From NCBI RefSeq assembly GCF_964355755.1, contig NC_092670.1, forward strand, positions 19,033,201 to 19,097,200: 64,000 bases of DNA, given 5' to 3'. The notes below the pieces were generated by a model, which did not search any database, had not been told where the DNA came from, and worked only from the letters and a program-made list of their open reading frames with translations. The position numbers were made by a program, and so were the translations under genes. Positions 39,081 to 63,487 of this stretch are shown in pieces; positions within the stretch are counted from its first letter, which is position 1; every line of letters starts with the position of its first letter. This stretch comes from Antedon mediterranea. Lineage: Eukaryota > Echinodermata > Crinoidea > Comatulida > Antedonidae.

Positions 39081-41581
39081 ATGCCTGGGTAAGTCTCAAT
39101 TTGGAAATTATGCAAATCGTTCAAGCCAAAACATCTAATTAAAATATAAAATATTTAAACAGAGGGTAGGCCTAATATTTTAAAGGTTAACAACTCTCGT
39201 TTTTTTTTAAACAATCACCCATAAAGTATACTAAAACAACAGTCTCAATTAAAAAAAACTACACATAATGAATATTTATAATAGTATTTAACATGGTAAC
39301 TCTATCTTTTTAATCAATTTTTTTTTTATAGAAATTCATCGTCAACAAACTACGGCTTTGGAGAAGTATCAAGAAAAAGAGGAGAATGGAAAAAATATGC
39401 AGCATGTGTTTTTGTTGGTTTATTTGTTGGTCTATTGGGGTGGATGGCACCAGTTGTTCCACTGCAAAGAATTAAACAAATATCTGTGAATGGGACAAAG
39501 CTTGACCAACCCGATTTGTACTTCCTTAATATCTACCACTTGGTATTTTTTCTGCCTATAGTGTTTTACAGCGCCATCATTGTGAAATGGCTCCAGTGCT
39601 TTTTTGTGATGGTAGAAGAATTAAAACACATAAAAACTCGTCATAAGAACTCATTTCGCACATTAGTTGAGAACTGCTACCAAGTTTTCTGGACATTAAA
39701 ATCGTGGGTAGGACTTGGGATTTCATTGCTTATTGTGCATTGGATGAGAAGTATGGATAAAGAACTATTTGATAACCATTTTGTAATGTACTGGCCGATT
39801 GTGGTAACATCCGTTGGTATTAACTTAATTACCAACTACATACTGGGTTTTGAGGTTTGTATCAAACTAAATGAAAGTATACAGCTAATTTACAGACGAC
39901 AATGTCCAAATTTATGGGAATCTGTTTAATTGCTTATGCAGATTTGGAAAATATCTAGTTTTGGGATAGTTTCTGATTTTCCAAGTATTCACTGCTTTAA
40001 TTGATATAGTATTAACCTGACAGAATGTCTATTAAACACCATTCTAGGCTAACTAACATTTTTGTGCCCAGTGGACTAGTTCTCATCAAGCTTATTTAAC
40101 AGTAATCTTTATTATTCAGCGACATTTATAGTAATGCACTTGTTATTTTAAACTTTGCAGACTCTATCAGTTGTTGAACTGAGTGAAATCCATGAATCTA
40201 GCAATGTCTATGTCGCACAGGGCCTAGCATGGAGTTACTTCACTGGCTATCTCAAAATTATTCTGAAAGGTTTGTAATTTAGTGCATTTTTAAGATTCAT
40301 TACTTTTACAAAATTAACTTCAAACTTTATTTTTTGCATTTAGAAACTTTTTTTTTTTAAACAGAATTGGTTAAAGTAGAGTAGGGGTTACCCTGGTGTA
40401 TTGGTTAGTTTCAATGTGTCCTGAAAAAACGAATGAGCGATGTTTATTGGAAGCGGTATGATGACTATTGTGTAGATTGTCCCAGTTACGCTACACATTT
40501 ACAAAACAGGCTTTTTCTTTTTTTTTTTGCAGATCTTCAAGGAACTATTAAGAAAGATGAAAAAAAGTGGAAAAAAGAATATGAAGATGGAAACTTGCAA
40601 AGCAAATTTTATGCTATTATTCCTCTCAACTGTAAAATTCCTTCCAAACTTGGAGAGAGTGAAAAACACAGAGGAATTACTTTTGAGGGCAAGCTGCCTA
40701 CTTTGTTTGTCGATCGTGCAGGTGTAAAAGACAGACCTTACGTTAATTCAGTTTACAAAATTGACAATGAAAAAGGCGAAGTAAGTATAAATAGATAATT
40801 TATTGTTGTTCTATCAATCTTTACAACAAGAGAGTGACTAAATCTACTAAACATTGTCTCTTGTTTGCTGCAGGAATGTAAAAAAAAAAAGATGTTATCT
40901 GTCAATGCTTTTTTAATGTAAAAATGTCTTCTTCTTTTAGTATCACTATGCCATTTGTGAATATGTGACCATCATTGATACACTGTTCCAGATGCCTTCA
41001 TGTACTGATTTTGACCCACAAAACCGTGAAGAACAGTGCCGCTTGCTTGTCAGGAAACTTAGGGAATTGATTGAAAGTGATGATGAATGTCGAGAAAAAT
41101 GCGTAATTGTGATGTTTTCAGGTAATCTTTTTTTTACTATTGTGTCATTTCCAATAGAATATATTTGGTGAAATTTGTGACATGTCAGTTAACAATGGTT
41201 TGACATCCCTTTGTTCAGATAAAGGACTTGACCTGTGACAAGCTCTGTGTTGGCCATTTATGTACAATTCTAAACTTAATTGTAAATGATGCAAAACTGA
41301 TTCATTTACTTTGTCTAAAGCTCTGTCTACACTTGATGTGGAAAAAAATGTGATGTGGCCATATATGGACATGGTGATGTTATATCACTAATTTAAGCGT
41401 ATCACTACCATATTTGGGCACATCACACTTTTTTTGTCAAACTAGTTTGATAGTGTAGACAGAGCTTAATAATCATGTTAATAATGTTATTGCTTTTCTT
41501 TCAGGGGAAGATGAAGGCCCTCTATTAAGAGATGTTCTTCTTGACAGAATAAAAGAAAACCGGTTACAGATCAATGGCTAG
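39081..41581 (+). CDS. STING1: STING copy 1 (A-type, intact, 381 aa)
   Basis: STING is an ER membrane receptor for cyclic dinucleotides such as cGAMP that starts innate signalling. Six coding exons: 39081-39088 (only ATGCCTGG), 39332-39854, 40161-40269, 40533-40780, 40941-41121 and 41505-41581 (1146 nt; human STING has 379 residues). Exon 2 encodes four hydrophobic segments. Exons 3-6 encode the ligand-binding dimer domain: [15 protein letters not shown] (human S162, Y163, Y167), DRAGVKDRPYVNSVY (R232, R238, Y240, N242) and [11 protein letters not shown] (E260, T263). All pocket residues are kept. The protein stops at KENRLQING, so the vertebrate C-terminal tail that binds TBK1 and IRF3 is absent, as usual in invertebrates. 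A MITE lies in the last intron. Confidence 0.95.
41319..41466. mobile_element. MITE family 1, copy in the last intron of STING copy 1
   Basis: Starts AGCTCTGTCTACACTTGATG and ends TAGTGTAGACAGAGCT. TAA flanks on both sides (41316-41318 and 41467-41469). Part of its left end is deleted. Absent from the matching introns of STING copies 2 and 6, so it inserted after the duplications. Confidence 0.8.
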
Positions 41582-44050
41582 AAGCGAATGTCTAAGTGTG
41601 TTATGATGTGTCATGGTTTTTTAAGAGGCTGTGGAGATTTTTAATATTAAAATGTTTTTATGTATATTTTTGTTTGGCATCCTGACTATACGAGTTTGTT
41701 TTTGTCTACAATTGAATTAGATTCATTTTGTTGTGGTATTTTTTTAATTTAAATTTAAATTCTTAAACTTTGACATCTCACTATGTAAAAAGTGCAAGTG
41801 AAGGATTGTATGTATTATGTTGACTTTAACCAGGGTATTTTTATTTTATCTATTTTATTTAATCAAGATCAACAGTGGCACAAATTTATATTATTTTCAA
41901 ATAAAATGTATATATTAGTGTCTTTTATCATTTTTTACAAATAACAAATAGATGAACTTCCATTAACCCTATTCTATAACAATACAAGTATATACAGTAG
42001 TTAAAATTCTGCAACAATGGTGGGCATTTCTTTTCCTTTTTCATTTATTTTTCATTCATCAAGACTCAACAGATTGACACTATACAATATTATGTAAATA
42101 TTTTTCCATAAATATAATATTCATAAATAATGAATATACAATAGAAAGGACTTACATTATTATAAGATAAGATGAAATATACCAAAATCTATATGTAAAG
42201 TAAACTGTTTAGTTTAAAATGTATTACGATATAACATACATCATATTTTTGATACTTAATACTATTCATATAAAGTAGTTAATTAGAATAGGTAAAAATA
42301 TTCATGATTTTCTGCAATTTCTGTTAATTATTTAAGTTGTTGTGTTTCATGTCTATAATGTCAATATTTGCTAAAATGTATTTTGGTGCAGAATGAAGTA
42401 TTGATAAAAGGTAATTCAAGATAAATGATTTATTTAATTGAAATTCATGAATTGGACTTTAGAAAGCACAACAAATAAAACATACTTTTCAGCATCCGTC
42501 GTATCATTGATTGTACTGTAGTACTATTAATATACCGTAAAATATTTATGGAGGTGAACAAATTTTAATTGTCGATAACAAGTAACAACATAAATGTTAG
42601 AAACACATATACGAACAGTAATAAACGCCGAATATATATTTTAAAAGTTGGATATATTAATAAGAAGCCACACAAATAATGATAAAGAATGGGTTTTTTT
42701 TAAACCGTTTGAAAAATGGTAAAACTGACGAGTGTATTGAAAATGACTCCAATGTTATGCGTCGTCGGGGGAAATAAACATTTAAAACCGTAATAGTAAC
42801 GGCTTTTCATCTATATATAAATTTACGTAAGGGCAAAATTCGGTAAATCTCGGTTTATTTCTAGAATTTCTACTCGATGGTATATAAAGTTGGTTCATAC
42901 TTTCGGTACTGATTTTAACCATCTGATGTAACCCTGTTTACTAATTAAATTGAGTTAGGTAATTAGTTATTGACGATTAAAACGAATTTAGGTTCAACGA
43001 TTTGCCCCAAATAGGGGTGTTGTCCGATCGTGGTATACACTGTCTAATGGATGTCCATCTTGAAAAATACCCGCCACAAAAATACGAGGAGGCTTCGCAT
43101 TTTCCTATCTCCTCCTACGATAATTGTTTTTAATAGCTGAAAACTGGTTGAACAGCTAGAGTACAGCATCATAATGTTGAAGACGGGCCGATTTTCTTAA
43201 AAAAATACTATTTTGATAGATTTAATATACGATTATACAAATGTATTGATTTGCGATGAATGGAACATTCCAATCTCTGTTTCACAAGTGTCTATTCCCT
43301 CAGGCGTCGTAAAGGCAAGTACAGTACTGTATACTCGAAATTCGATCCATTTTTGTTTTCAATCTGTGCTGCAGAGGTTGGATATAATTTTTTTTTTAAA
43401 CGGATAATGAGCTAGCGTTTTCACTCGCCGTATATTATGTACAAATCTTTATTATTGCAGTTAAACCACCCACATCATCACCTTTCCCTCACTGGCATGA
43501 GTAGCGTTGTAAAACCAGTAGAGAATAGGCCGCGCCTACGGTACATAACATGCCCTAAACGCAGAACAACTTTGGTGGGTAGGGTAGGAACCAACTTAAG
43601 TATAAATTGGCTCTAAGAAACAATTGAAACCATTAGGCCTACTAATTAAGTTGAGTTAGATAATTTAATATTATGTTTTACTGTGTTTAGTGGTATATTA
43701 TTTGTAAAACATGAAAGCAATTAATATTTCGTTACTAAATGGATAAAGAATATATTTTAACATTGTTCCTCTTTGCACCCATCCTCTTCCCCATCCCTCA
43801 ACCCTAATATTACATACAAAACACAAATTAAGTTTGTTTAAATTTGACTTAAACAATTGGTCTTATTTGTGACAAGTTTCTCTTTCGGAAGTAATAGGGT
43901 GCTAATTTTAGTTGAGTACATAAATCACAGTGTCTATTTATTCGTTCCTGTACACGACATGTATTATTGTCCTGCGGTACGTACATTTGAAATCGCCAGT
44001 TTTTTAACGCTGAAATTATTATGTATTCGAGAACCATCTGTGAGCACGAC

Positions 44051-44087
44051 CTAGATGGTACGCGAGCGAAGCGAGCGTACCATCTAG
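44051..44087. other. Perfect 13-bp-stem hairpin upstream of STING copy 2
   Basis: CTAGATGGTACGC, an 11-base spacer GAGCGAAGCGA, then GCGTACCATCTAG. The stem is perfect and the GC content far exceeds its surroundings. Function unknown. It may be a transposon footprint. Confidence 0.6.
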
Positions 44088-44184
44088 TATTATTAATTTT
44101 TCTAAATCTTCATATGTGTTCGCATTATGTAACACAACGACAACATATTGTTCATTTAAATTTAGATACAAACATTTGTTGATC

Positions 44185-44297: not shown

Positions 44298-46150
44298 ATG
44301 GCGGGGTAAGTTTTCCCTGTTTTCTGTTACTAAAGATAATTTAAACTGTAAATTACGATTCCATAATATATTTTGTATTGTAGGTGTGATCACTGCATTG
44401 CAAACAACACACCGGGAACAACTCACATACTTATGTGGTGCCGAAAAAACGAGGTGAAAGGACACGATATACGGCCAACTTGTTTTGTTTTCTATTCGGT
44501 ATTTATAGTTTTTATTTGATCGCAACTACAGTTCAACTTGAAAAGATGGAAGAAAGAAGCTTTTGCAACTGGACACTAACGGCTGGCGAAGAAGAGTTAT
44601 GTCTTGTCCGTGAATACAACCATGTATTCTCTCTGCCTGTCCTATTTTTCAGTGCCATCATCTCAAAAATTGTTATGTGCTTGTTCGTGTTGGCCGAGGA
44701 ATACAAGCACAAGCAAAGTCGCCACAATAATTCAAACCGCCAGTTGCTTAAAAATTGCTTCCAGGTATTTCTGACAATGAATTTTTTAGTGGGATTTTGC
44801 ATTTTACTGGTTTCCCTATATTGGATAAGGAGTAAAGATATATATCTTTTTACCAATCACTGGTCACTCAACTGGCCAAACATCATAACGTCGGTCGGTG
44901 TCACAGTCATTACGAACTACGCATTTGGTTTCAAGGTTTGTACAGTTTTTTAGTAGGGCCTATATGATATTCTTAACATAAATAGGCTAATTTTGGACTT
45001 TTATGAAGCTGTTCTTAACTAGTTAACCAGTTGACCCACAACAATGAGCCATTTTTGTAGTTGTTTTTATTTTTTTTTATTTTCTATAGTCACTATCAGT
45101 TGTTGAAAACAGTGAAATCCATGAATCTAGCAATATCAATGTTGCACAGGGTCTAGCATGGAGTTATTTTACCGGGTATCTAAAAATCATTCTGAAAGGT
45201 TTGTGAATTAGCTTTTTTGCCTTAAAAATCAAAAAATAAACAATAACAAATCTTCAAAAATAATTTTTAAAAAAATACTTTATTTAACACTGTGCATATA
45301 CTAGTCTTCTTTCACATCGTCTGTTCTCTGAATTATATTACTAATATATAAAGTCATTCATTCTTTTACATTAAGCTGTATGAATATATCATTTTATCTC
45401 AGATCTTAAAGGAACTATAGAAAAAGATGAAATATGGAAACGTGAATTAAATCAGGGAAACCTGCAGTGCAAATTTTATGCTATTATACCTCGGAACTGT
45501 AGCATTCCTTCCAAACTTGGAGACAGCGACAAACACAGAGGAATTACAATTGTCAGTGATTTACCGGTTGTTGAAGAACCTCGTGCTGGTGTTACCAGGA
45601 GGTACATTAATTTAGTCTACAAAATTGAAAATGAAGAAGGAGTTGTAAGTAAAATCTGTACTGTAGTGCTAGTTCATATATAATAAATGGATAGCTAAGA
45701 AGTGGTTACTTTTTACAAAATATTTCAATATAGAGCCTTTTCTTTCAGTCGCACTATGCCATTTGTGAATATGTGACCATCATTGATACACTGTTCCAGA
45801 TGTCTTTGTATACTGAATTTAATGCACAGAAACGTGATGATCAGTGCCGTTTGCTCGTCAGAAAACTTACGGAACTAATTGATAGCAACGAAGATTGTCG
45901 AAATAAATGCGTCATTGTGCCTTTTTCAGGTAAACACAAAATAGTGTCTAAACCAATCATGTTTGCCCTGAAATTGTATGCGTGACTTTGTTTTATTTAA
46001 GAACATACAATCTTGATCTGAAATGGATTAATTTACTTTGCCTAACAAATTTGTTTAATTTATTGGTTTTTTTCAGGTGCAGATGATGGCCCTCTGTTAA
46101 GAGATGTCCTTCTTGATAAAATCAAAGAAAATCGGGTACAAATTAATTAG
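44298..46150 (+). pseudogene. STING1: STING copy 2 (A-type; N-terminal frame disrupted, otherwise intact)
   Basis: Exons by homology: 44298-44305 (ATGGCGGG), about 44384-44935, 45090-45198, 45403-45644, 45749-45929 and 46077-46150. Exons 3-6 and most of exon 2 (transmembrane region) are open and clearly STING. However, the frame matching the other copies (GNNSHTYVV...KKRGE) meets TGA at 44387-44389, and the frame from the exon 1 ATG runs to a stop inside transmembrane segment 1. The summed exon length is 2 mod 3, so a one-base indel near 44384-44414, a sequencing error, or an unseen start is implied. Ligand pocket: SYFTGY and CEYVT kept, but the lid reads PRAGVTRRYINLVY, one residue shorter than in copy 1. 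Ends KENRVQIN. Introns and 3' flank are nearly identical to copy 4. Confidence 0.8.
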
Positions 46151-47530
46151 TGGCTAAAAGTTGACTGAAAATGTATTATGATTACTGTAGCAGTGCCAGA
46201 GTAATCCTCGCCACAAGTGCCCATGATCTGACCATATATTTTGTCTACTTTTGATTTGATTTTGGTGGGGAGTTTTTTTTAGTTTCAATTTTTATTTGCA
46301 ATTCTTAGAATTCAAAATAATTTCAGTATCATATAGGCCTATATTTTTATGAAAAAACCGTAAAAATAAATGAACTAAATACAATTTTTTATAACAATAT
46401 TAGTACAGTATACAGGTTTTAACTTTAAACAAGGTATTTTTATTATTTTTGTTTTGTATCAAGGCTGAATAGTAAGTAACCAATTTCTGAATTAAGTGTG
46501 ATGGGTTAGGGTTTTATTCAAATTTTGTTTGCATTTCTTAGAATTAAAAATAATTTCAGTATCATATATATTATTATGAAAATACTAATAAATGAACTTT
46601 TCTATAATAATATAAGGACAGTATACAGGTCTTAACTTTGAACAGGGTATTTTTATTTATTTTTTATTTTTTTATCAAGGCTGAATAGTGTTTTCCTTTT
46701 ATGCATTTTATATATATAGATACTTGAAAAGTACTGATTAAAGGTTAATCAAATTAACAGTTAGTATAGTTAAATGCACATTTTATAATAAAATGTTTAG
46801 TTAGTAATTCTGCGTCATTTATCATTATAGTATTATTGATATACAGAATAAATGAAAACAAATATTAATCATTTGGTGTTCATGTCTATAATGTAAATAT
46901 TTGCCAAATAATAATAATAATAATAATCATCATATTTTGTGCAGAATGATTGTTGATAAAAAGGAATACAAAGTAAATGATTTTTTAAAATACGAACAGT
47001 AATATCCTAGAGTGTTAAAAAGAGTCATTATTTGAATCACCAACCATGAAAGCCCCGGTATTTTAATGGATTTCGGGTTCGATTTACACATATAATTGAA
47101 CATATAAAGAGCCACATATGACATGAAAGAACCTCACAACAAGTGTTAAAAAGAGCTGTATAAAATGGGCCGATTATTAATGACAATGCGCGCGCCGATC
47201 GAAATAATGTATTAAATGCGCGTGTCACATTACTCATTTTTCTAAAGCTTTTGTTCTCATGAAACATAACGATATTATATTCTTATGGAAAATCCAATTT
47301 AGATAATTTTAGATACTAGTTTGCATATAATGAACGATACTGTAGGCCATTGTCAACATTATACTCGATCCTGTTAAACCGGCATAACGCCAATTGCAAT
47401 TCGTCAAGAAAAGGGTCAGTATCGTTTCAAAGTTCAATCCTCGTTTCTCTCATAACATTTATTAATATCTTGTTATTTTTTTTCTCATTTTTATATACAG
47501 TATTATTGTGTATCCAGTGTATGTACAACA
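46151..47530. other. Intergenic region between STING copies 2 and 3
   Basis: 3' UTR of copy 2 followed by the shared intergenic module. It matches 52652-54261 (between copies 4 and 5) nearly base for base over more than 1 kb, for example GTATCAAGGCTGAATAGTAAG, TTAATCAAATTAACAGTTAG and AAAATGGGCCGATTATTAAT. A noncoding first exon of copy 3 probably ends near 47415, with its acceptor (TTATATACAG) at about 47500. Confidence 0.6.
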
Positions 47531-50378
47531 ATGGCTAGGTAAGGTTCCTCATAATTATTCTATGCTGATAAAAATATTATGATGTAAGCCTCTTACAATA
47601 GTGGGGCTGATATTAAGTGGAGTGGTATTGATATTAAGTGGAAAGAGCTGATAACGTCAGCTCCATGATCTATGCTATAGTAAATATAATTTTAATTGTT
47701 TCACCATTCCAATGGTTATTCACCAAACCCCAATATTACGGTACCAATTACGGCATTATTTATCAATAGGAATTCTTATTCTTCTGGGTGTCGAGAGATA
47801 CCAAAAAGGCGAGGCAAGGCCAATGAAATTGCAGCAATTATTGTTGGTATATTATGTATGATTTATTTGTGTGTGGTGTGGATGATTATCAAAGTGGAAA
47901 CGCTAGGCGAAGGTGACATATTCTTTCAATGTATGTATAACTCTCTATCTGCTCTGCCAGTGATGTTGGTCTGTACCATCATTACAAAATGGTTTTTTTG
48001 CTCTTTTGTGCTGATCGAAGAACAGAATCACACGAAAAGTCGTTACGATGGTAACAGTTGGCTGCTATTTAAGAACTGTTTCCAGGTATTTTTGACAAGA
48101 AATTTCGTCTTAGGAGTAGTATTCTCCATTGTTATTGTGATTTTGGTGATAAGTAGCGGTACAGATAGTTTTTACAAGTTCTTCGTCACCAGCTGTCTGA
48201 ATTCCATAACAGCAATCGGTGTTTCAATCATTACAAACTACATTTTCGATTTTAAGGTTGGTACGTATAGGCTGTAGTATAATATAAATAAAGTTTGATA
48301 CCAATTAAAATATATTTGTTGATTAATTTTATTTATAAATATCACAGACACTATCAGTTGTTGAGCTCAGTGAACTTGATGAATCTAGTAATACCAATGT
48401 TGCAAAGGGCCTAGCATGGAGTTACTTTACTGGATATCTGAAAATCATTTTAAACGGTATTTATCAACCATTATAAAGTAGTATTTTTGCTAATTAATTT
48501 TAATTTCTTAGTCTTTGACTAATCTTTAATTGCTTAGTCTTTGACTAATCTTTAATTTCTTAGTCTTCGACTACTCTTTAATTTCTTAGTTGTTGACTAA
48601 TCTTTAATTGCTTAGTCTTTGACTACTCCTTAATTTCTTAGTCTTTGACTAATCTTTAATTGCTTAGTTTTTGACTAATCTTTAATTTCTTAGTCTTTGA
48701 CTAATCTTTAATTTCTTAGTCTTTGACTAACCTTTAATTTCTTATAGTCATTGACTAATCTTTAATTTCTTAGTCTTTTTTGACTAATCTTTAATTTCTT
48801 AGTCTTTGACTAATCTTTAATTTCTTAGTTTTTGACTAATCTTTGATTGTTTAGTCTTTGACTAATCTTTGATTTCTTAGTTTTTGACTAATCTTTGATT
48901 GTTTAGTCTTTGACTAATCTTTAATATCTTAGTCTTTGAATAATCTTTAATTTCTTAGTCTTTGACTAATCTTTGATTGTTTAGTCTTTGACTAATCTTT
49001 GATTTCTTAGTGTTTGACTAATCTTTGATTGTTTAGTCTTTGACTAATCTTTAATTTCTTAGTCTTTTTTGACTAATCTTTAATTGCTTAGTCTTTGACT
49101 AATCTTTAATTTCTTAGTTTTTGACTAATCTTTAATATCTTAGTCTTTGAATAATCTTTAATTTCTTAGTCTTTGACTAATCTTTGATTGTTTAGTCTTT
49201 GACTAATCTTTGATTTCTTAGTCTTTGACTAATCTTTGATTGTTTAGTCTTTGACTAATCTTTGATTTTTTAGTGTTTGACTAATCTTTGATTGTTTAGT
49301 CTTTGACTAATCTTTGATTTCTTAGTTTTTGACTAATTCTTAATTTCACTTAAAAATGTACTGTTTTTAGTATTAGTATTATTTAGTATTATTCTTATTT
49401 TATATCTTTGCAAATCATGGGAATAACACACATCAATCATTTTGTATCATTGATTGGTTGTAAGGTTCGTGTTTCACAAGAAAAAGTTATAGTAATACAA
49501 AACAATTCTTTTCCATCAGATCTTAAACAAACGGTCGAGAACGATGTAAGATGGAAACAAAAATTGGAAAACAAAACATTAAAATGTGTATTCTATGCTA
49601 TTGTACCTCTGAACTGTAAAGTTCCTGCTGATTTGATTGAATATAAGGAAGGTATTACGCGTGTGGGTGAGTTGCAACCTGTGTCAAAAAATCGTGCTGG
49701 TATGAAAAGGGAGTACACTATTCCAGTATACAAAATTGAAAAAAAAAACAACGAAGTGAGTATAGACTTTAAGAAGTGCATGTGCGCAGCTTCTACTAAA
49801 GACATTAAAATAAATATTTGACTGGTATTTGCATATACAATATTTAGTCATAGTCTTTAAATCAGTCCATTAAGTAAGTGTGACTATAAGAAATCTTATT
49901 TTTTAGCCACCATTCTTTGTTATTTGTGGGTATGTGACCATCATCGATACGCTGTTTGAGATGACTAACTTTATTAAATTTGAAGAAAAGAAACGTGAAG
50001 AGCAATGTCTACTGTTCATAAGGACACTTCAGGAATTAATTGACGACAATTGCGAAGAAAAGTGCGAGATTGTGACTTTGTCAGGTAAGCCTTGAGTACC
50101 AAAGATGGAGAAGGGTAGTAACACTATATTTTGTCTGCCTAGATTGCGTAACGTAGGCCTTCTCTACACCTACACACAAAAAACCTCCTATATGTTGAGC
50201 TATTTGACACATAAAGAATTAACCGGTAATATTAAGTTCAACAGGCTTTTGAAATCTTGGCTAATCAATGTCATTTTTAGGTGACGACTCTCTGATAGAT
50301 GCTCTTTATAAAAAAAGAGAGAAAGAGAACAAGAACGAGGGCGGAGAAACTCGACTGTCAATGAGTACTGATGTATAA
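47531..50378 (+). CDS. STING1: STING copy 3 (B-type, divergent ligand pocket and new tail, 371 aa)
   Basis: Six coding exons: 47531-47538, 47770-48256, 48348-48456, 49520-49755, 49907-50084 and 50281-50378 (1116 nt, all phases as in copy 1). Four hydrophobic segments lie in exon 2, and the [11 protein letters not shown] helix is conserved. The lid region reads [14 protein letters not shown], one residue short, with human N242 replaced and R238 either lost or shifted. Human E260 is replaced by Gly ([12 protein letters not shown]), while T263 is kept. The C-terminus diverges after the domain into a charged tail, [20 protein letters not shown] and TDV, in place of the A-type LLRDVLLD...KENR ending. 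RLSMS weakly resembles the pLxIS motif that recruits IRF3. This could be a sensor of altered specificity or a regulatory partner. The intron after exon 3 holds a large minisatellite. Confidence 0.92.
48495..49345. repeat. Minisatellite of ~25-26 bp (TTAGTCTTTGACTAATCTTTAATTTC), about 33 copies
   Basis: Fills most of the intron between exons 3 and 4 of STING copy 3. Unit variants (TTTAATTTC, TTTGATTG, TTTAATTGC) alternate, giving a higher-order period near 50 bp in the second half. A single unit (GTCTTTGACTAATCTTTAAT) sits at about 55250 in the matching intron of copy 5, so the array expanded from one seed in copy 3 only. Confidence 0.95.
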
Positions 50379-51530: not shown

Positions 51531-52651
51531 TGATGAAGAGGAGATATGCATTGTCCGTAAATACAACCATCTATTTTCTCTGCCAATCGTGTGTTTTTTA
51601 CTGCCCTTGTTGTAAAATTGTGTATGTCCTTGTTCATGTTCTTTGAGGAATTGTTATAGAGTTATTTCACCGGGTATCTAAAAATTATTCTGAAAGGTTT
51701 GTGAATTAGCTTTTTTGCCTAACAAAAATCAATAAATAAATCAATAATAAATCTTCAAAGTAAAAATAAATACTTTATTAACACTGTGCATGTAACTAGT
51801 CTTATTTCACATAGTCTGTCTGAATTATATTACTATATATAAAGTCATTCATTCTTTTACATTAAACTGTATGAATATTATCATTTTCTCTCAGATTTTA
51901 AAGGAACTATAGAGAAAGAAGAAATGTGGAAATGTGAATTAAATCAGGGAAACCTGCAGTGCAAATTCTATGTTATTATACCTCGGAACTGTAGCATTCC
52001 TTCCAAACTTGGAGACAGCGACAAACACAGAGGAATTACAATTGTCAGTGATTTACCGGTTGTTGAAGAACCTCGTGCTGGTGTTACCAGGAGGTACATT
52101 AATTCAGTCTACAAAATTGAAAATGAAGAAGGAGTTGTAAGTAAAATCTGTACTGTAGTGCTAGTTCTAATATAATAAATGGATAGCTGAGTAGTGGTTA
52201 CCTTTCTAAAATATTTCTTTTCTTTCAGTGGCATTATGCCATTTGTGAGTATGTGACCATCATTGATACACTGTTCCAGATGTCTTTGTATACTGAATTT
52301 AATGCACAGAAACGTGATGATCAGTGCCGTTTGCTCGTCAGAAAACTTACGGAACTAATTGATAGCAACGAAGATTGTCGAAATAAATGCGTCATTGTGC
52401 CTTTTTCAGGTAAACACAAAATAGTGTCTAAACCAATCATGTTTGCCCTGAAATTGTATGCGTGATTTTTTTTATTTAAGAACATACAATCTTGTTTGTA
52501 AAATCATATAGTTGATCTGAAATGGATTAATTTACTTTGCCTAACAAATTTGTTTAATTTATTGGGTTTTTTTTCAGGTGCAGACGATGGCCCTCTGTTA
52601 AGAGATGTCCTTCTTGATAAAATCAAAGAAAATCGGGTACAAATTAATTAG
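51531..52651 (+). pseudogene. STING1: STING copy 4 (A-type, membrane region deleted)
   Basis: A late duplicate of copy 2. Exon 2 survives only as 51531 to about 51650 (EEEICIVRKYNHLFSLPIV, then a frameshift). It then runs, with no intron, into the end of exon 3 ([12 protein letters not shown], to 51696), preceded by a TAG stop. A deletion has therefore removed the rest of exon 2, the second intron and the start of exon 3. Exons 4 (51895-52136), 5 (52229-52409) and 6 (52578-52651) are open and nearly identical to copy 2. The first exon and transmembrane segments 2-4 are missing, so a normal STING cannot be made. A soluble ligand-domain protein is conceivable only if another start is used. Confidence 0.88.
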
Positions 52652-53336
52652 TGGCTGAAAGTGCCCATGATCTGACGATATACTTTGTCTACTTTTGATT
52701 TGATTTTGGTGGGGAGTTTTTTTTAGTTTCAATTTTTATTTGCAATTCTTAGAATTCAAAATAATTTCAGTAGGCCTATATTTTTATGAAAAAACTGTAA
52801 AAATAAATGAACTAAATACAATTTTTTATAACAATATTAGTACAGTATACAGGTTTTAACTTTAAACAAGGTATTTTTATTATTTTTGTTTTGTATCAAG
52901 GCTGAATAGTAAGTCACCAATTTCTGAATTAAGTGTGATGGGTTAGGGTTTTATTCAAATTTTGTTTGCATTTCTTAGAATTAAAAATAATTTCAGTATC
53001 ATATATATTATTATGAAAATACTAATAAATGAACTTTTCTATAATAATATAAGGGCAGTATACAGGTCTTAACTTTGAACAGGGTATTTTTATTTTTTTA
53101 TATTTTTTTATCAAGGCTGAATAGTGTTTTCCTTTTATGCATTTTATATATATAGATACTTTAAAAGTATTGATTAAAGGTTAATCAAATTAACAGTTAG
53201 TATAGTTAAACGTTAAAGATAAAATAAACCACAAGTCCATGCACATTTTAAACAGGGCATTTTTATTTATTTTTTTTATCAAGACCTAATCGTGATAAGT
53301 CACCAATTAAAATAGTTTGATTGTTTTCCTTTCATG

Positions 53337-53373
<37 letters not shown>

Positions 53374-54261
53374 TATTTGAAAAGTAGTGATTAAAGGTTA
53401 ATCAAATTAACAGTTAGTATAGTTAAACGTTAAAGATAAAATAAACCACAAGTCCATGCACATTTTATATTATATTATTTATTATTATAAAAAATGTTTA
53501 GTTAGTAATTCTGCGTCATTTATCATTATAGTATTATTGATATACAGATTAGAATAAATGAAAACAAATATTAATCATTTGGTGTTCATGTTTATAATGT
53601 AAATATTTGCCAAATAATAATAAATATATTTTGTGCAGAATGATTGTTGATAAAAAAATAACACAAAGTACAGTAAATGATACAAAGAAACAAACATGAA
53701 CAGTAATATCCGAGGGTGTTAAAAAGAGTCATTATCCAATCGAATTTGAATCACCAAGCATGAAAGCTCCGGTATTTTAATTGATTTCGGGTTCGATTTA
53801 CACATATAATTGAACATATCTATTAAGAGCCACACATGACATGAAAGAACTTCACAAAAAGTGGATGCATTACAAAATGGGCCGATTATTAATGGCAATG
53901 CGTCGATCGAAATAATATAATAGTGCACGTTTCACAATATTCATTTTTCTAAAGCTTTTGTTCGCCTGAAACACAACGATATTATATTCTCATGAAAAAT
54001 CCAATTGAGATAATTTCAGATTTTAACATTTGTTGATAATTTGCATATGAACGAGACTGCTAGGCCAAGCGTCACTGCCAGCATCTGTATACAAAGCTGA
54101 TAACGCTAATTTTCAATTCATCAAGAGAACGGTATAGTAAATTCTAACTTTTAATCCTCATTTCTTGCATAATATCATTTATTGATATCTCATTCTTTAC
54201 TTGTTTTAATTTTTTTTTATATACAGTATATTAATGTGTATCCAGTGTATCTACTACAACA
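52652..54261. other. Intergenic region between STING copies 4 and 5, with an internal tandem duplication
   Basis: Homologous to 46151-47530. In addition, a block containing ATTAAAGGTTAATCAAATTAAC and AAAATAAACCACAAGTCCATGC occurs twice (from about 53172 and about 53388), a local duplication of about 216 bp. The second copy is preceded by a (TA)n run at 53342-53371. The first exon of copy 5 is probably noncoding and ends near 54134. Confidence 0.65.
54039..54046 (+). promoter_or_regulatory. Octamer ATTTGCAT upstream of STING copy 5
   Basis: Perfect octamer in the same block (TTTGTTGATAATTTGCATAT) found upstream of copy 2, 216 bp before the ATG, with a 5' UTR intron between. Confidence 0.45.
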
Positions 54262-57200
54262 ATGGCTGGGTAAGCTTTCTTATAATTGTTACCCTTTAAG
54301 TAAAACACTTACGTTTCACCCCGACTGCAATATTTAATGTTTGATTGAATAAAAAGAAAGTAATTATAGCTAATTAATGGTTCTACATTTGTAATCGTTG
54401 TAGATATTGAGCATAACAATTCACTATCCCAAAAATACCTAGTTGTTAACTAAACCCCAATATCACCAATTATAGCGTTATTTAATCAATATAGAAAATC
54501 TTCTTCTGGGGTTCGAGAGGTACCAAAAAGGCGAGGCAAGGCCAACGAAAAGGCAGCAATTTGTGCTTTTATTGTAATTATGATTCATTCGTGTGTGGTG
54601 TGGATGACTGTCAATGTGGAAAAGCTAGAAAAAGGTGATATAGTCCGTCACTGTATGTATAACTCTGTATGTGCTCTGCCAGTGATGTTGTTCGGTGCCA
54701 TCATTACACAGTTTTTTTGTTGCTTGTTTGTACTGATCGAGGAACGGAAGTATATGGAAATTCGTTACGATGGTAACCGCTCTCTGCTATTAAAAAACTG
54801 TTTCCAGATATTTTGGACAAGGAACTTCGTCGTGAGATTAGTAATCTTCATTGTTATTGTGGGTTTGATGATAAAAAGTGGAACAGATAGTTTTGACAAC
54901 TACTTTCTCACCAGCTGGCTGAATCCCATACCAGCAATCGGTGTTTCAATCATTTTATACATATTTGATTTTAAGGTTTGTTACGTTTAGGCTATATAGT
55001 ATTTATTAATTAGGTATTTTGTAAATCAAATTTGAGTTTGATACTAGTTAATATATATTTTGTGATTGATTGTATTTTTTATAAATATCACAGACACTAT
55101 CAGTTGTTGAGCTCAGTGAAATTAAAGAATCTAATGTCAATGTCGCACAGGGCCTAGCATGGAGTTACTTTACTGGATATCTGAAAATCATTCTAGAAGG
55201 TATTTATCTACCGTTATAAAATAGTATTTATGTCACACTGTATTTTGGGTCTTTGACTAATCTTTAATATCTTATATCAAAAATCAAAATATATATACCT
55301 ATTTGAATTATGTATTTAGAAATAAAAGAGAATTTAGACTGATTGCTATATACATTGAAAAAAGTTTTAAATAAAGGAATGTCCAAATCAAGAGAAATAA
55401 TTTTATTTTAATGTTTTAGAAAATGCTTTACTTTAAGAAACGACCGCCTAAATATTGATTCATGTTATTATGTAATATGGGCCGAAGGCCAAAATTACGA
55501 ATAAAGAAAGAAAGAAAGTTCGTGTTTCACAAGAAAAAGTTATATTAATGCAAACCAATTCTTTTCCATCAGATCTTAAAAGAACTATCAATAAGACTGG
55601 AAATTGGAAACAACAATTGAAAAACAAAACACTAAAATGTGTATTCTATGCTATTGTACCGCTGAACTGCAAGGTTCCTGATTTGATTGAAGATGAAAAT
55701 GAAGGTATTACGCGTGTGGGTGAGTTGCAACCTGTGTCCAAAAATCGTGCTGGTATGAAAAGGGAGTACACTATTCCAGTATACAAAATTGAAAAAAACA
55801 ACGAAGTGAGTATAGATTTTAAGATTAAGAAGTGCATGTGCTCTGGTCTGCCTAGTTCAGCTTCTAACATTAAAAATAATATTCGACTGCTATATTTGCA
55901 TACCATAAAATAGTTTAAGTTAGTCTTAGTCTTTGAATTTGTCTATTAAGTATGTGTGACTATTATAGATTAAATTATTAAAAAAGGTATTAGAATTATT
56001 GCTTAGGCCCTACATAAAATCTATTATTAGAGTGATCAAGATTATTTCAACAGAATAAACTATGGAAAAGGAGGAGTGAGTATAGACTTTATATAGAAGT
56101 GTTCTGTTCTGCCTGTAGTTCAGCTTCTAGGCCTACTAATTAATACATTAACAGGAAGTACAATCTTGAAAGAATTTCATTTAGCTTCGATTTTGTATAG
56201 ATGACAAATTTCGTTTTTGTAAAAGCACAAGTTAACGGAGTACTTACTCGAACGTTTCGATCTCTATCAGAGATCCTTCTCAACTGACTGCGGAGTGTTA
56301 ATGCAGCTTGGTCATTCTTGACGTCATCTGTTGATGACGTTGTACGCCTCCGGTTGTAGGTCATCAAGAAAGCGTTACACAACTGCCAGTATCCAGAGTG
56401 GTCCTTCCAGAGAGTTATGGAAAACCGAAAAAGAAAAAAGAACAAAGGACACGAACCACAGAAGGAAAAGATCAAGATGCGAGGTAGCATAGGAATCCCC
56501 TATGTAAAAGGAATGGCAGAAAGAATACGACGCACTCTCTCCTATCACAATGTCGGAACCTATTTCCTACCCCAAAATAAAATCAAGAATAGCCTCGTCC
56601 ACCCAAAAGATAAAATCGAGAAGATGGATACATGTGGAGTAATCTACGAAGTCACCTGCCGCAACTGTCCACAAGTTTACATTGGGGAAACAGGGAGGGC
56701 ATTACAAACACGAATTAATGATCACAAAAAAGATGTTACAACAAACACGGGGGGAGTAATGACTAGGGCCTCCAGAACATCCACATCTTCGATCATACAC
56801 AAATCTGCCATTACAGAACATGTCATAAAACACAATCATGTACCGAACTGGGAGGCTACCATCTTAACCAAAGAGCCTAAACGCAAAGACAGACAGATTA
56901 GAGAATCATTACATATAAGGAGAAATAAAGAGAAGACCATGAACCGGGACACTGGAGCCCACGAACTCTCGCATTTGTACAATGATTTGATAGACACATC
57001 ACCTGGCCGAGCCCCGCACAACCTCCAACCTACAACCGGAGGCGTACAACGTCATCAACAGATGACGTCAAGAATGACCAAGCTGCATTAACACTCCGCA
57101 GTCAGTTGAGAAGGATCTCTGATAGAGATCGAAACGTTCGAGTAAGTACTCCGTTAACTTGTGCTTTTACAAAAACGAAATTTGTCATCTAGGAAGTACA

Positions 57201-57769
57201 ATATTCGACTGCTATTGCATACCATAAAATAGTTTAATTAAGTCTTAGTCTTTAAATTAGTCTATTAATAAGTAAGTGTGACTATAAGAAATCTTATTTT
57301 TTAGCCACCATTCTTTGTTATTTGTGGGTATGTGGCGATCATCGATACGCTGTTTAAGATGACTGAGTTTATTCAATTTGATAAAACGAAACGTGAAGAG
57401 CAATGCCGACGGTTTGTCAGGGCACTTCAGGAATTAATTGATAACCATTACAAAGAAAAGTGCGAGATTGTAAATTTGTCAGGTAAGCCTTGAATACCAA
57501 TAATGGAGAAGGGTAGTAACACCAATTGTATGCTTGCTGGATTGCGTAACGTAGGCCTTTACACCTACACAGAAAACCTATATGTTGAGCTATTTGACAC
57601 ATAAAGAATTAACCGGTAATATTAAGTTCAACAGACTTTTTAAATCTGGGCTAATCTATGTCATTTTTTAGGTGAAAACAACGACCGTTTGATAGATGCT
57701 CTTTATAAAAAAAGAGAAAGAAAGAGAAGAAGAACAGGGCGGAGAAGCTCGACTGTCAATGACTACTAA
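54262..57769 (+). CDS. STING1: STING copy 5 (B-type, intact frame, 367 aa)
   Basis: Six coding exons: 54262-54269, 54495-54975, 55094-55199, 55573-55805, 57305-57482 and 57672-57769 (1104 nt). Closest to copy 3: same short lid ([14 protein letters not shown]), same E260-to-Gly change, and also T263 to Ala (CGYVAIIDTLF), so two pocket residues that contact the ligand in human STING are lost. In exon 2 a residue is missing from the TNYIFDFK motif. The C-terminal tail is strongly basic (KKRERKRRRTGRRSS) because of a one-base length difference from copy 3, which puts the last 20 residues in another frame. A Penelope-like element sits in the fourth coding intron, and a LINE-type tail precedes exon 4. 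Gene expression is unknown, but splice sites are intact. Confidence 0.9.
55280..55520 (+). mobile_element. LINE-type 3' end in the third coding intron of STING copy 5
   Basis: Ends ATATGGGCCGAAGGCCAAAA then TTACGAATAAAGAAAGAAAGAAAG, the short hairpin plus simple tail seen at the 3' ends of many CR1/L2-like elements. The matching intron of copy 3 has no such segment. The start is unclear. Confidence 0.5.
56165..57190 (+). mobile_element. Penelope-like element, 5'-truncated, with 164-bp inverted arms and 12-bp target duplication
   Basis: Bounded by AGGAAGTACAAT at 56153-56164 and 57191-57202. The arms 56198-56361 and 57028-57191 are near-perfect reverse complements, and an endonuclease frame lies between them. 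An inverted terminal segment next to a truncated body is known from Penelope elements. The reverse transcriptase is missing. Sits in the intron between exons 4 and 5 of STING copy 5 and is absent from copy 3. Confidence 0.92.
56417..57091 (+). CDS. GIY-YIG endonuclease domain of the Penelope-like element (remnant)
   Basis: Open frame of 224 codons. The GIY-YIG nuclease signature is at residues about 74-92: GVIYEV, then the CxxC pair in TCRNC, then VYIGETGR. Arg is in LQTRINDH, followed by SAITEHVIKHNH and the downstream RQIRESLHIRR helix with the conserved Glu. In these elements the domain nicks target DNA for insertion. The upstream reverse transcriptase has been lost and the true start lies in the missing part, so this is a fragment and probably inactive. 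The frame runs into the right inverted arm. Confidence 0.9.
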   Translation: MENRKRKKNKGHEPQKEKIKMRGSIGIPYVKGMAERIRRTLSYHNVGTYFLPQNKIKNSLVHPKDKIEKMDTCGVIYEVTCRNCPQVYIGETGRALQTRINDHKKDVTTNTGGVMTRASRTSTSSIIHKSAITEHVIKHNHVPNWEATILTKEPKRKDRQIRESLHIRRNKEKTMNRDTGAHELSHLYNDLIDTSPGRAPHNLQPTTGGVQRHQQMTSRMTKLH

Positions 57770-59178
57770 AGTATAATACAAGGTTTTTACCATGGGCATC
57801 GATCCACTCCAATGACCGTTCACTTCGGGAATATTTATATATTTATTATCTTATTCAAATGTCACTATACAAATATTGGTAACACGGCCACTGTGGCTAT
57901 TAGTATATTTGTTGCAAAAATGGATGTTTTAAGAGCTTTAAACTTAAATAAAAAATCAGCTTATGAATGCAATGAATGTACCTATATCTAGTGAACCATG
58001 ATAGTGCACTAATGTAATAAATAGACCTTTAAAAAGTCGGTTGATCCTATAATAATAATAATTTGTTTATTTCTGGTGTATTATTTACGGTAATTTGGGC
58101 TGCATTGTATTATTTCAACCTTTAGTTCGGGTTTTAGTTATAGTAAACGCTCCATAGTCTGAAGTTATCTAATTTGCCATTGTTTTCTTTTAGTGTGTGC
58201 GTACGATTTTCATTTTTGAATAAATTAAATATTGTAATGTTCAACTTGTTTTAATTCAGTATTATTTTCATCAATATGCTTACGACAGTTTTTGTTCTGC
58301 CTTCGGTTAAAACTATCATTATTCATAGACCTAGTTAATGGATGATTACTAGCTATTGCCTAGTTTAAAGTAAAGGTTTTCAGCTCCTTCCTACTGGTTA
58401 CTAGGTAAGCATCTATATTTTTATCTCTAGTCTTAATTTTAGAATTGTTTTGCTTTAATAAGTATGTTACTTGTTTTAAGTTATAGTTGTTGATTGTATA
58501 CTATAGACACAACGCAATAGTAGCCTATACTGCCGTTAATGACACGATCGATCGATTACTGTTATTTTAAATAGTAACACGACATAGCTTTGTTACAGTC
58601 TTTGTGGATGATTTTATTGTGTTTGTGCCAGTGCTGCAGCTCTGGAAAATACTACGCGATACAACGACGCTCGAACCTGTTACATATGTAATTGTAAGGG
58701 AAAAAATACGAATAGTAATTTTAATTATACAAATTTTATAAACGCAAAATGAAGTTAGTAATTAATGAGTCGTGATAAAGAATGACTTTGTAATGTAATG
58801 ACTGAGAATGTAATGAATCGATCAGTAAACGGCGTTTCACATTATTCTATTAATATTCTATGGGAAAAACCAATGTGTTTATTTTTAGATTATAATGCTT
58901 GTTATTTGCATCTGAATGCGCGCAGGATCGAATATCGTATGTAGACCACAGCGTCATTGTCAATGGCCGCATCATAAACGCTAAAATAATTCGTCAAGAG
59001 AAAAGGTTAGTTAATAAATCGGTTTAAATGTCAATTTAACCTTTTTAACGTTTCTTGTTCCTTGCATTCTTGTCAAATAACATTTATTAATATCTCAATA
59101 TTTATTTGTTTTTAATTTTATATACAGTACCGAAGGCCTAATTTGTATTCTGTGTCTAGTAATCTACATTTTACCACA
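57770..59178. other. Intergenic region between STING copies 5 and 6
   Basis: The first 470 bp match the 3' flank of copy 3. Then comes unique AT-rich sequence, and from about 58700 the shared STING upstream module (AATACGAATAGTAAT, TTTCACATTATTC, octamer). A first noncoding exon probably ends at about 59005 (AAAAG|gttagt), with its acceptor TTATATACAG at about 59128. No other gene seen. Confidence 0.55.
58904..58911 (+). promoter_or_regulatory. Octamer ATTTGCAT upstream of STING copy 6
   Basis: Perfect octamer about 100 bp before the inferred 5' UTR donor. The flanking context TTTTTAGAT...GTT-ATTTGCAT is shared with copy 4. Confidence 0.45.
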
Positions 59179-61349
59179 ATGGCTGTGTAAGGTTTTCTCT
59201 TTTATATACTGAATGTAAAATATGATACTGTAATTAAGATTAAGAGGGATAGATCCTGCTCTTCCTTCCCTGTTTCTTGCATACCATCTACAAATGACAC
59301 TTATGTTTAACCCCCCGGAATATTTACAGGTATATAACTTTGTAGGCGTATCCATTACTACCCTAAAACGGTACTAGACCTAAAATAAATTCTACATCAT
59401 AAGAGGGATAGATTGTATAATGACATTTTTATTATACTTTGATAGAAATTCATCTTTAGTTAACTATGGCTTTGGAGAGTTGCCAGAAAAACGGGACGAA
59501 TCGAGACAAAACAATGCAGCATACATTGTTATTATTGTACTCGTTATTATTTTTATACTGATCGGGGTAATATGGTTTGATGGTAAAGAGGAGCTACAAT
59601 CCAACCGTATATACAACCATGTATTTTCTCTGCCAATCGTGTTTGTCAGTGCCTTCTTTACAAAATGTTTAATGTGCTCGTTCGTGTTCTTCGAGGAATG
59701 GCCGCACATAGAAACTCGCTACAACAACTCATCCGCCACTTGCTTTAAACACTGTTTCCAGGTATTTCGGACGACATTATTTGTGGGATTTTGTGTTTTA
59801 CTGATTTTCATTATGGGAATATTTTGGATGATGAGTAAAGACCATCATTTCAGTAACCACTGGTCACTCAACTGGCCGAACATCATAACGTCGGTCGGTG
59901 TCACAATCATTACGAACTACGCATTTGGTTTCAAGGTAAACGGTTACAACTAATATTAACAACAATTCAATGTAGGTTCACTTGAATCGATCATTAAAGT
60001 TATTATATTCCTTATAGGAAGCGAATACTGTAGTCTAAATTGATTCATTGTAAATTTGTGTGTATATATATTTGTTTATTTCATAGTCACTGTCAGTTGT
60101 AGAGCTTAGTGAAATTCACGAATCTACCAACATCAATGTCGCACAAGGATTAGCATGGAGTTATTTCACCGGCTATCTAAAAATCATTCTGAAGGGTTTG
60201 TAAATTACATTTTCACAAAAATAAATTAAGTAATCAATTACAAATTGATCAAATAGTATGTATTTTCTCAACTGCACTGTATTGATAAAAGGCACCACAC
60301 CACACCACATCTACTGTATTATCATTTTCCCTTAGATCTTAAAGGAACTGTAGAGAAAGATAGAGATGATGACCCCAATGGTATAAGCTGGAAAGCCGAA
60401 TTAAACCAGGGTAACCTACAGTGCATGTTTTATGCTATCGTGCCTCTGAACTGTGAAATTCCTTCCAAACTTGGTGATTGTCCCATTAAACACAAAGGAA
60501 TTACCTTTGAGGGCAAGCTACCTACTCTGTATGTCGATCGTGCAGGTGTGAAAGACAGGCCGTATGTTAATTCAGTTTACAAAATTGACAATGGAAAAGG
60601 AGAAGTAAGTGAATAGTTTAAGACGTTGGTGTTTATTAACATGTCTTATGTGATTACTCAATGCTAATAGAAATTCCTGCAGTGCAGCAAAGTTATCTTG
60701 TGCTATTCTTGCTTGTTGTAGGAGTTAATAATGTCAACATTTTTTTTCAGTCAAAGTTGGCCATTTGTGAGTATGTAACCATCATTGATACACTGTTCCA
60801 GATGCCTCTTTGCACTGATATTGACCCACAAAAACGTGAAGAACAGTGCCGCCTACTAGTCAGCACACTTCGTGACTTAATTAAAGAAGATAAAGATTGT
60901 CGCAATAAATGCAAAATTGTGACTTTTTCAGGTAATGTTTCTAAATCATTATGATTTTTAGGGTGAACATAAAATTTATTAGAATTAGTGTTTCCGTAAC
61001 AGCTTTATGCCAATGTTTAAGACACTGAAGTACGAGAATGACTTTGTTTGTTTTGGCAAGATTGTTGAATTGTTGTACTTTGCACTGTTTTGTATTTGTG
61101 TCTCAGAGCGACAAACTTGTCTATACATTATTGTAAGCTTATGCAAATGATATTAATAAATGGAGGAAATGTTTGCGTAGTAAAGATTAACACACTGTAC
61201 TGGAAACAAAGTAAAGGATAATAAACCGAATACTTAATATATTTAAATATAAATACATTTGTTATTGCTTTTCAGGCAAAGAAGACGGGCCTCTTTTAAG
61301 AGACGTTCTTCTTGACAATATCCGAAATGTTGGGGTGCAATTGGAGTAG
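59179..61349 (+). CDS. STING1: STING copy 6 (A-type, intact, 376 aa)
   Basis: Six coding exons: 59179-59186 (ATGGCTGT), 59446-59935, 60087-60195, 60336-60604, 60751-60931 and 61276-61349 (1131 nt). Exon 2 gives four hydrophobic segments; its last part (WSLNWPNIITSVGVT) is shared with copy 2. The ligand domain retains SYFTGY, DRAGVKDRPYVNSVY and [11 protein letters not shown], so the canonical pocket of copy 1 is complete. A seven-residue insertion (DDDPNGI region) lengthens the loop after KGTVEKDR relative to copy 2. Ends NVGVQLE with no tail. This and copy 1 are the best candidates for cyclic-dinucleotide receptors in the array. Confidence 0.95.
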
Positions 61350-61807
61350 AGGGATGACTGAAGATTTCTTATTTTGGGGTTTTTTTTCGTAATTAAGGAC
61401 TGCGTTACAAGTGAATCTTGTGCATATTTGACGTTAATTAATCATTCATTGTCTCTCATGAAATTCCAATATTGATCATTTGGATTAGGATATAGTTATG
61501 ATAATATCTCAACAAACAAAAACCCAACATTTAAAAAAGATTAAAGGATTGATTTGTGTATATACTGGTAATTGGTTTATTTTTTGTAAATTGCATTTTG
61601 TTCGTAAGAGTGAATAAATAAATATAAATTTTCTCTGAACATTTTCATTCGTTATTTTGTCTTAATATCGGACATCGTACGAAATTTATATTTTGTTTTG
61701 AAGGGAATTCAATTTTCCATCGATAATAATAGGCCTCTAGGACTATCTGTCTATTTTTTATTGTAAGGATAAAATTTATTTAATGTAAAAATATCTTCTT
61801 CTTTTAG

Positions 61808-62287
61808 CCTCAATATGCAATTTGTGAGTATGTAACCAGCATTGATACACCTTTAAAGATGCCTCTTTGCACTAATATTGACCACAAAAACATGAAGAGC
61901 AGCGGCCGCTTGTTTGTCAAAAAACTTATGTAATTAATTTTAAAAAGTAGCGAGAACAATTCATGCTTGTGCTATTTTCAGGTAATCTTTTTAACTACTG
62001 TGCCGTTTCCAATTTGGCGAAATTTGAAACATTTCGACTGACAACAGTCTGATTTCCCTTTGTTCAGATAAAGTACTCGACCTCTTTCAATTAAGCCCTG
62101 TGTTTTTAATATCTTAGCCATTAATTTTTATGCATTCTAAAACTGTTTTAATCTTATAAAATTGTTTAATTTACTTTGCCTAAACAAAAATGTTGATAAT
62201 TATTTTATTGGGGAAGATGACGGCCCTCTATTAAGAGATGTTCTTCTTGACAAAATTAAAGAAAACCGACTACAGATAAATGACTAG
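61808..62287 (+). pseudogene. STING1: STING copy 7, 3' remnant
   Basis: Exon 5 homology from 61808 (acceptor CTTCTTCTTTTAG) reads QYAICEYVTSIDT, then KMPLCTNID. It then loses frame and meets TAA at about 61931, ending near 61980 at a surviving donor. The exon 6 homologue (62211-62287, EDDGPLLRDVLLDKIKENRL...) is open, but its acceptor AG is gone (TATTGGGGAAG instead of TTTCAGGGGAAG). Exons 1-4 are absent. The sequence and 3' flank resemble copy 1, not the adjacent copy 6. Confidence 0.88.
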
Positions 62288-63473: not shown

Positions 63474-63487
63474 GTTCAAAATCAAGA

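What the first reader, a model, noticed from the sequence alone, without database searches (positions are those of the whole stretch)
39081..62287. Seven-copy tandem STING array in 23 kb
Four intact and three damaged STING copies lie on one strand with identical exon structure (8-nt first coding exon, phases conserved). Most animals are described with one or a few STING genes, so a local birth-and-death family with intact, frameshifted, deleted and remnant members is notable. The copies are recognised by the SYFTGY, DRAG and CEYVT pocket motifs.
Basis: partly seen in the sequence, partly recalled or inferred. Interest (0 to 1): 0.95.

Follow-up and report, generated by a model that had tools for sequence, protein, structure and literature searches.

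The report
Nine-copy STING gene array in crinoid
A feather star carries at least nine side-by-side copies of STING, an immune sensor that most animals have once; five can still encode a full-length protein, and the same genome holds dozens of likely enzymes for making STING's signals.

Summary
Seven STING loci lie on the + strand at 39081-62287: four open (c1, c3, c5, c6), three damaged (c2, c4, c7). The array runs past the window: c8 (open) and c9 (broken) follow, giving nine loci in 38.6 kb, five open. Two whole-genome searches (354 Mb) found STING matches only here. Copy 1 is identical to an Antedon mediterranea (crinoid) protein. Another crinoid, Anneissia japonica, has at least three STINGs, apparently on one contig; in the full-length tree the seven Antedon copies used form one clade (100/100), so the expansion looks lineage-specific (ligand domain alone: only 67/77). 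c1, c6 and c8 keep the cyclic-dinucleotide pocket and are constrained (omega 0.31-0.41). c3 and c5 lost a pocket glutamate (human E260), have a one-residue-shorter lid and omega near 1, yet stay open. The genome has 37 Mab-21-type frames with a cGAS-like GS/[ED]xD motif, 36 with the third Asp. Networks of many STINGs and many cGLRs are known in coral and oyster; this is a new case in an echinoderm. Ligands, expression and function are untested.

The parts
39081..41581 (+). STING copy c1, six exons 39081-39088, 39332-39854, 40161-40269, 40533-40780, 40941-41121, 41505-41581; 381 aa, open; canonical pocket residues kept
   Evidence: equals P0001
44298..46150 (+). STING copy c2; exon 1 and exon 2 out of frame, stop in the spliced reading; E3-E6 open; 94-99% identical in 200-base windows to c4 from 45267 to 46961
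47531..50378 (+). STING copy c3; 371 aa, open; E260G, N242I, lid one residue shorter; intron 3 holds a 26-bp tandem array
   Evidence: equals P0009
51427..52651 (+). STING remnant c4: fragment of E2, end of E3, E4-E6; annotated by NCBI as a 155-aa protein (P0012)
54262..57769 (+). STING copy c5; 367 aa, open; E260G, N242I, T263A, short lid, C-terminal tail in another frame than c3's; intron 4 holds a GIY-YIG element; the NCBI model found (P0010) lacks exon 2
59179..61349 (+). STING copy c6; 376 aa, open; canonical pocket
   Evidence: equals P0003
61808..62287 (+). STING remnant c7: exon 5 (damaged) and exon 6 only
56198..57191 (+). GIY-YIG element inside intron 4 of c5; ends form a 164-bp perfect inverted repeat (56198-56361 / 57028-57191); ORF 56360-57091
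63066..64000 (.). start of an LTR-like element (direct repeats 63066-63472 and 71071-71479 in window-continued coordinates, 96.8% identical) that separates c7 from c8 beyond the window

Best explanation
A lineage-specific birth-and-death array of STING receptors in the crinoid Antedon mediterranea. Whole genes were duplicated in tandem with their own first exon and 3' end, including a block duplication in which the 3' half of c2 plus c3 recurs as c4-c5; later gene conversion or re-duplication made the 3' halves of c2 and c4 alike again. c1, c6 and c8 are maintained as ordinary cyclic-dinucleotide-binding STINGs (membrane region plus ligand domain, no long C-terminal tail). c3 and c5 form a remodelled subfamily. 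Together with at least 36 candidate catalytic cGLRs, the copies would run several parallel second-messenger channels, as described for the coral Stylophora pistillata. Shown here: gene structures, frames, pocket residues, clade structure, selection estimates, cGLR catalytic motifs. Inferred: ligand binding, distinct specificities, signalling output, the duplication mechanism.
For: Nine loci, five open, one strand. STING_LBD and STING_TM profiles; solved STING structures matched by c1 (E 7.4e-34) and c3 (E 8e-30). S162, G166, Y167, R232, R238, Y240, E260, T263 conserved in c1, c6, c8. Whole-protein omega c6-c8 0.41 (0.29-0.56), c1-c8 0.31 (0.23-0.42), c1-c6 0.33 (0.23-0.46). Seven Antedon copies one clade, 100/100 in the full-length tree. 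Collinear c2-c3 / c4-c5 block with a 94-99% identical c2/c4 stretch that falls to 86, 76 and 71% downstream. 37 of 51 Mab-21_C loci have GS-x-[ED]xD in one open frame, 36 of the 37 with the third Asp; all distinct, highest identity 85%. PMC9980059 (passages): multi-STING genomes also have more than 20 cGLR genes.
Against: No expression, binding or long-read data. The ligand-domain tree alone holds the Antedon copies together only at 67/77, so partial concerted evolution or an older split is possible; the only outgroup of the full-length tree is a lizard on a very long branch. The membrane-part dS of c1-c6 is saturated (1.58; omega bootstrap 0.17-9.00). c1, c6, c8 and Anneissia copy a share the same residues at most of the 19 pocket positions compared, so the constrained copies may be redundant. 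The cGLR count rests on motifs; the one frame of its type tested, L014, matches MID51 (E 2e-25) better than cGLR1 (1e-23) or cGAS (1.5e-14) in the PDB and also passes Pfam's MID51-like cut-off. score limited candidates and search without regard to introns.
Confidence: 0.68

Rival explanations
1. Redundant or dosage-driven array: the open copies all do the same job, copy number is drifting, and c3/c5 are on the way to becoming pseudogenes.
For: Four of nine loci are already broken; omega of c3-c5 is 0.93 with a 95% bootstrap range of 0.61-1.42, compatible with no constraint; STING_TM below the cut-off in c3 and c5 (24.3 and 21.3 against 28.1 bits).
Against: In a neutral simulation of substitutions only about 1% of runs leave c3 or c5 free of stops at 0.11 changes per site (12% at 0.05), and both are free of stops over 371 and 367 codons. 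c1, c6, c8 are constrained and differ from each other by 22-27% in the ligand domain.
Confidence: 0.3
2. Assembly artefact: false tandem expansion from uncollapsed haplotypes.
For: c2 and c4 are 94-99% identical in windows over about 1.7 kb.
Confidence: 0.03
3. c3/c5 (and the related broken c9) are decoys or regulators that dimerise with canonical STINGs without binding their ligand, rather than receptors for another nucleotide.
For: E260G and N242I, T263A in c5, shortened lid, while R232, R238, S162, Y167 and Y240 stay in c3 and c5; their tails differ from the other copies.
Against: Keeping R232, R238, Y167 and Y240 points to continued nucleotide contact; dimerisation between paralogs is untested.
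Confidence: 0.2

Closest known systems
Stylophora pistillata STING set (seven STINGs, 42 cGLRs; PMC9980059, passages and section 9)
   Same: several STING genes plus dozens of cGLRs in one genome; ankyrin-cGLR fusions occur (here L058); ligand domains diverge
   Different: Here the copies sit in one tandem array with visible pseudogenes (arrangement in the coral not looked up). Each copy in which the positions can be read keeps serine at S162, and T263 is changed only in c5 (to Ala), so none shows the S-to-N and T-to-S changes reported for the 3'3' preference of Sp-STING3. No biochemistry done
Crassostrea virginica STING/cGLR expansion (PMC9980059, passages)
   Same: several STING genes with more than 20 cGLR genes
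   Different: different phylum; not compared by sequence here
Anneissia japonica STINGs (P0004, P0005, P0007)
   Same: another crinoid; at least three STINGs, all listed with contig length 337,817; close pocket residues
   Different: outside the Antedon clade in the full-length tree; no short-lid or E260G copy among the three found
Vertebrate STING (PDB 9vxt, taken to be human; species recalled) and Nematostella STING (PDB 5cfp)
   Same: ligand domain and key pocket residues
   Different: one STING in human per PMC9980059; no c3/c5-type pocket

Membership tests
STING (PF15009 / PF23417) | STING ligand-binding domain above the curated cut-off | tested here: met
   c1 136.2 bits; c5 107.4, c3 113.7, c6 118.0, c8 127.6, c9 71.3 (partial), c4 81.1 (partial); cut-off 27. 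c2 and c7 not run against Pfam, placed by tblastn
STING (PF15009 / PF23417) | STING transmembrane domain above the curated cut-off | tested here: inconclusive
   met for c1, c6, c8, c9 (35.3, 28.7, 40.4, 30.4 bits); c3 24.3 and c5 21.3 fall below 28.1 though aligned over most of the profile
STING (PF15009 / PF23417) | pocket residues S162, Y167, R232, R238, Y240, E260, T263 | tested here: met
   all seven in c1, c6, c8 and in the broken c2; not all in c3 (E260G), c5 (E260G, T263A), c9 (Y167F, T263 lost with the break); residues named as contacts in passages of PMC7288161
STING (PF15009 / PF23417) | binds cyclic dinucleotides and changes conformation | not testable with these tools
   needs protein
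multi-STING / multi-cGLR network (coral, oyster type) | three or more STING genes in the genome | tested here: met
   five open loci
multi-STING / multi-cGLR network (coral, oyster type) | more than 20 cGLR genes | tested here: met
   37 of 51 Mab-21_C loci with GS-x-[ED]xD, 36 of 37 with the third Asp; by motif only, activity untested; L012 (MAB21L-like, name recalled) lacks GS and the third acid and serves as a negative control
multi-STING / multi-cGLR network (coral, oyster type) | paralogs with different ligand preferences | not testable with these tools
   only residue changes seen

The most novel reading that the evidence does not exclude
Crinoids independently built a coral-like network of many cGLR sensors and several STING receptors, and within it a STING type (c3/c5) whose pocket lost a conserved glutamate and whose lid is one residue shorter, so that it reads a second messenger not bound by ordinary STINGs, while evolving at a near-neutral or diversifying rate.
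Probability: 0.25. Interest if true: 0.75.

Novelty: new member of a known kind. Interest (0 to 1): 0.5.

Why it matters
It gives a deuterostome outside the vertebrates with several STING paralogs at one locus beside a large candidate cGLR repertoire, so that the question whether receptors diversify along with the sensors' products can be tested by binding assays on paralogs of known relative age (c6/c8, c3/c5). The c3/c5 pair is a natural test of which pocket residues are dispensable.

Tried and rejected
Other STING genes elsewhere in the genome: none (18 and 17 candidates scored, 15 matches each, all in the array). The control (14 well-known genomes) had no match. Wider tree with other echinoderms: the protein searches returned only the two crinoids and lizards, so there is no echinoderm outgroup; absence there means little, because that search needs shared exact words. 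Structure models of c3 and c1 have mean pLDDT 65.2 and 65.9, pTM 0.48 and 0.51; nothing in the report rests on them. The PF03281 search did not complete. Rfam on the window at the gathering threshold: no match. The last part stopped with a script error after the checks that I use.

Papers: nine searches. None of the titles or abstract beginnings listed is about STING in crinoids or other echinoderms, but four listings were cut (20 of 123, 15 of 26, 12 of 44, 12 of 45), and most subscription papers are not held; PMC13319465, the one paper with 'cGLR', 'STING' and 'echinoderm', was not opened. PMC9980059: passages and section 9; its Table S5 was not seen. PMC12424679, PMC10732462, PMC7288161: passages only. 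All others: search listing only.

Rows dropped: c7 is in no tree; c4 is only in the ligand-domain tree; isoform P0006 was left out of the alignments; P0007 and P0012 were left out of A2-A4; Anj_c was cut before its odd insertion. In one search the last 27 codon pairs of the c3/c5 ligand domain (divergent tail) were left out: ligand-domain omega is 0.90 without them and 0.69 with them, dS 0.16 and 0.26. The pocket pattern could be read in 16 of 20 protein records (one of them an isoform of another); four lizard records did not fit the pattern and were not checked by eye.
Full report
What is there. The window lies on contig C1 (19033201-19097200) of a 354-Mb, 18-contig genome. Copy 1 is 100% identical over 381 aa to a protein of Antedon mediterranea, a comatulid crinoid. 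Each complete gene has six exons: a tiny first coding exon (8 nt in six of the seven loci with an exon 1, 11 nt in c9), one exon for the membrane part, and four for the ligand domain; in these seven loci all introns are GT-AG. c1, c3, c5 and c6 are open; c2 (exon 1 and 2 out of frame), c4 (lost 5' half) and c7 (exons 5-6 only) are damaged. Two more loci follow beyond the window: c8, open, 382 aa, and c9, whose exon 5 is broken. That makes nine loci, five open, in 38,560 bases. Two searches of the whole genome found STING matches only here (15 matches each; these counts are lower bounds by the tool's own words).

Is it STING. The ligand domain passes Pfam's STING_LBD cut-off in the seven copies tested (c1, c3, c4, c5, c6, c8, c9). 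The membrane domain passes in c1, c6, c8 and c9 and falls short in c3 and c5. Sequence comparison with solved structures finds STING at E 7.4e-34 for c1 and 8e-30 for c3. The open copies end within some 20-35 residues after exon 5, so they lack a long C-terminal tail; that the vertebrate tail recruits TBK1 is recalled knowledge.

How the array grew. Self-comparison shows that a block with the 3' half of c2 and all of c3 recurs, in order, as c4-c5 (pieces between 45158-50789 and 51656-58232). The c2/c4 part is 94-99% identical in 200-base windows from 45267 to 46961 and falls to 86, 76 and 71% beyond it (90.3% over the whole BLAST match including its ends and gaps). c2/c4 have dS 0.05; c3/c5 have dS 0.21 in the membrane part and 0.16-0.26 in the ligand domain, without and with the divergent tail. 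Later gene conversion, or a second duplication, of the c2/c4 part explains this; which one is not decided. In trees c3, c5 and c9 form a clade (97/95 ligand domain, 99/99 membrane part). Seven Antedon copies (without c4 and c7) are one clade against three Anneissia japonica STINGs and a lizard in the full-length tree (100/100) and in the membrane tree (99/99). In the ligand domain alone that clade has only 67/77. Clusters thus occur in both crinoids, with the Antedon expansion mainly its own.

Which copies are kept, and how. c1, c6 and c8 keep S162, G166, Y167, R232, R238, Y240, N242, E260 and T263 (human numbering). Their pairwise omega over the whole protein is 0.31-0.41, upper bootstrap bounds 0.42-0.56; for the membrane part of c1-c6 alone dS is saturated and the range is 0.17-9.00. 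c3 and c5 have glycine at E260, isoleucine at N242 and a lid one residue shorter, and c5 also has alanine at T263. E260, N242 and T263 are listed as ligand contacts in passages of PMC7288161. In the 16 of 20 protein records where the pattern could be read, only c3 and c5 lack the glutamate. The short lid also occurs in c2, c4 and c9. c3-c5 omega is 0.93 (0.61-1.42) with the divergent tails left out; with the tail the ligand domain gave 0.69. Under a simple neutral simulation about 1% of runs keep such a frame free of stops at 0.11 changes per site, 12% at 0.05. So the pair is weakly constrained but used, or diversifying, or only recently released; the data do not decide.

The sensors. STING reads products of cGLR enzymes. 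A search with the Mab-21_C profile gave 51 matches in the genome. I fetched all 51 and took the open frame around each: 37 carry GS-x-[ED]xD, and 36 of these have the third catalytic Asp, L040 having Glu. All 37 are distinct, the closest pair being 85% identical. L058 is an ankyrin fusion by Pfam; L060 looks like one by eye. Of the other 14, L012 is a MAB21L-like gene (name recalled) that lacks the motif and serves as a negative control; the remaining 13 frames (79-475 aa) do not show the motif region, as far as aligned. Motifs do not prove activity, and the one frame tested against PDB (L014) is nearest to MID51, then cGLR1 and cGAS.

What is known. PMC9980059 (passages and section 9; [quoted passage not shown] pistillata (7 STINGs, 42 cGLRs) and the oyster C. 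virginica, with more than 20 cGLRs. Four coral STINGs were assayed and each had its own ligand pattern; N at the S162 position and S at a threonine position explain the 3'3' preference of Sp-STING3. I take that threonine as T263 by spacing (inference). None of the Antedon copies shows these two changes, so by that rule 2'3'-linked ligands are the default prediction for c1, c6 and c8. The paper's main text does not hold the words crinoid, Antedon or Anneissia; its table of species was not seen. Nine literature searches, four of them with cut listings, listed no title on STING in crinoids or echinoderms.

Verdict. The array is real by all evidence available here, larger than reported, and a new, probably independent case of a known kind. 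Its most interesting part is the c3/c5 pocket and the paired cGLR repertoire. Function, expression and ligands are open; that NCBI lists two isoforms for c6 (P0003, P0006) may hint at transcripts, but no reads were seen.

Noticed in passing
window 56198-57191: GIY-YIG ORF (PF01541) flanked by a 164-bp perfect inverted repeat, in intron 4 of STING copy c5; looks like a Penelope-type element (name recalled).
   Followed up: partly
window 63066-64000 continuing to L009:7479: Direct repeats of about 410 bp, 96.8% identical, flank an 8.4-kb stretch with long ORFs of retroelement look (by eye); probable LTR element between c7 and c8. Observed only.
   Followed up: no
window 48495-49347: 26-bp AT-rich tandem array, 32.5 copies, inside intron 3 of c3.
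   Followed up: no
G000 C1:8.67-8.75 Mb, C1:24.12-24.25 Mb, C3:27.39-27.52 Mb, C7:8.05-8.09 Mb: Clusters of Mab-21/cGLR-like loci, most of them with catalytic motifs in one long open frame.
   Followed up: partly
L058, L060: Ankyrin repeats fused to a Mab-21 nucleotidyltransferase with the catalytic motif (L058 by Pfam, L060 by eye).
   Followed up: partly
L010:9166-9576: Exportin-1-like exon (PF08389) downstream of the array; possible synteny anchor.
   Followed up: no
P0007 (Anneissia japonica): The third Anneissia STING model carries a stretch of roughly 55 residues before its last exon that the other copies lack; possibly an annotation error.
   Followed up: no
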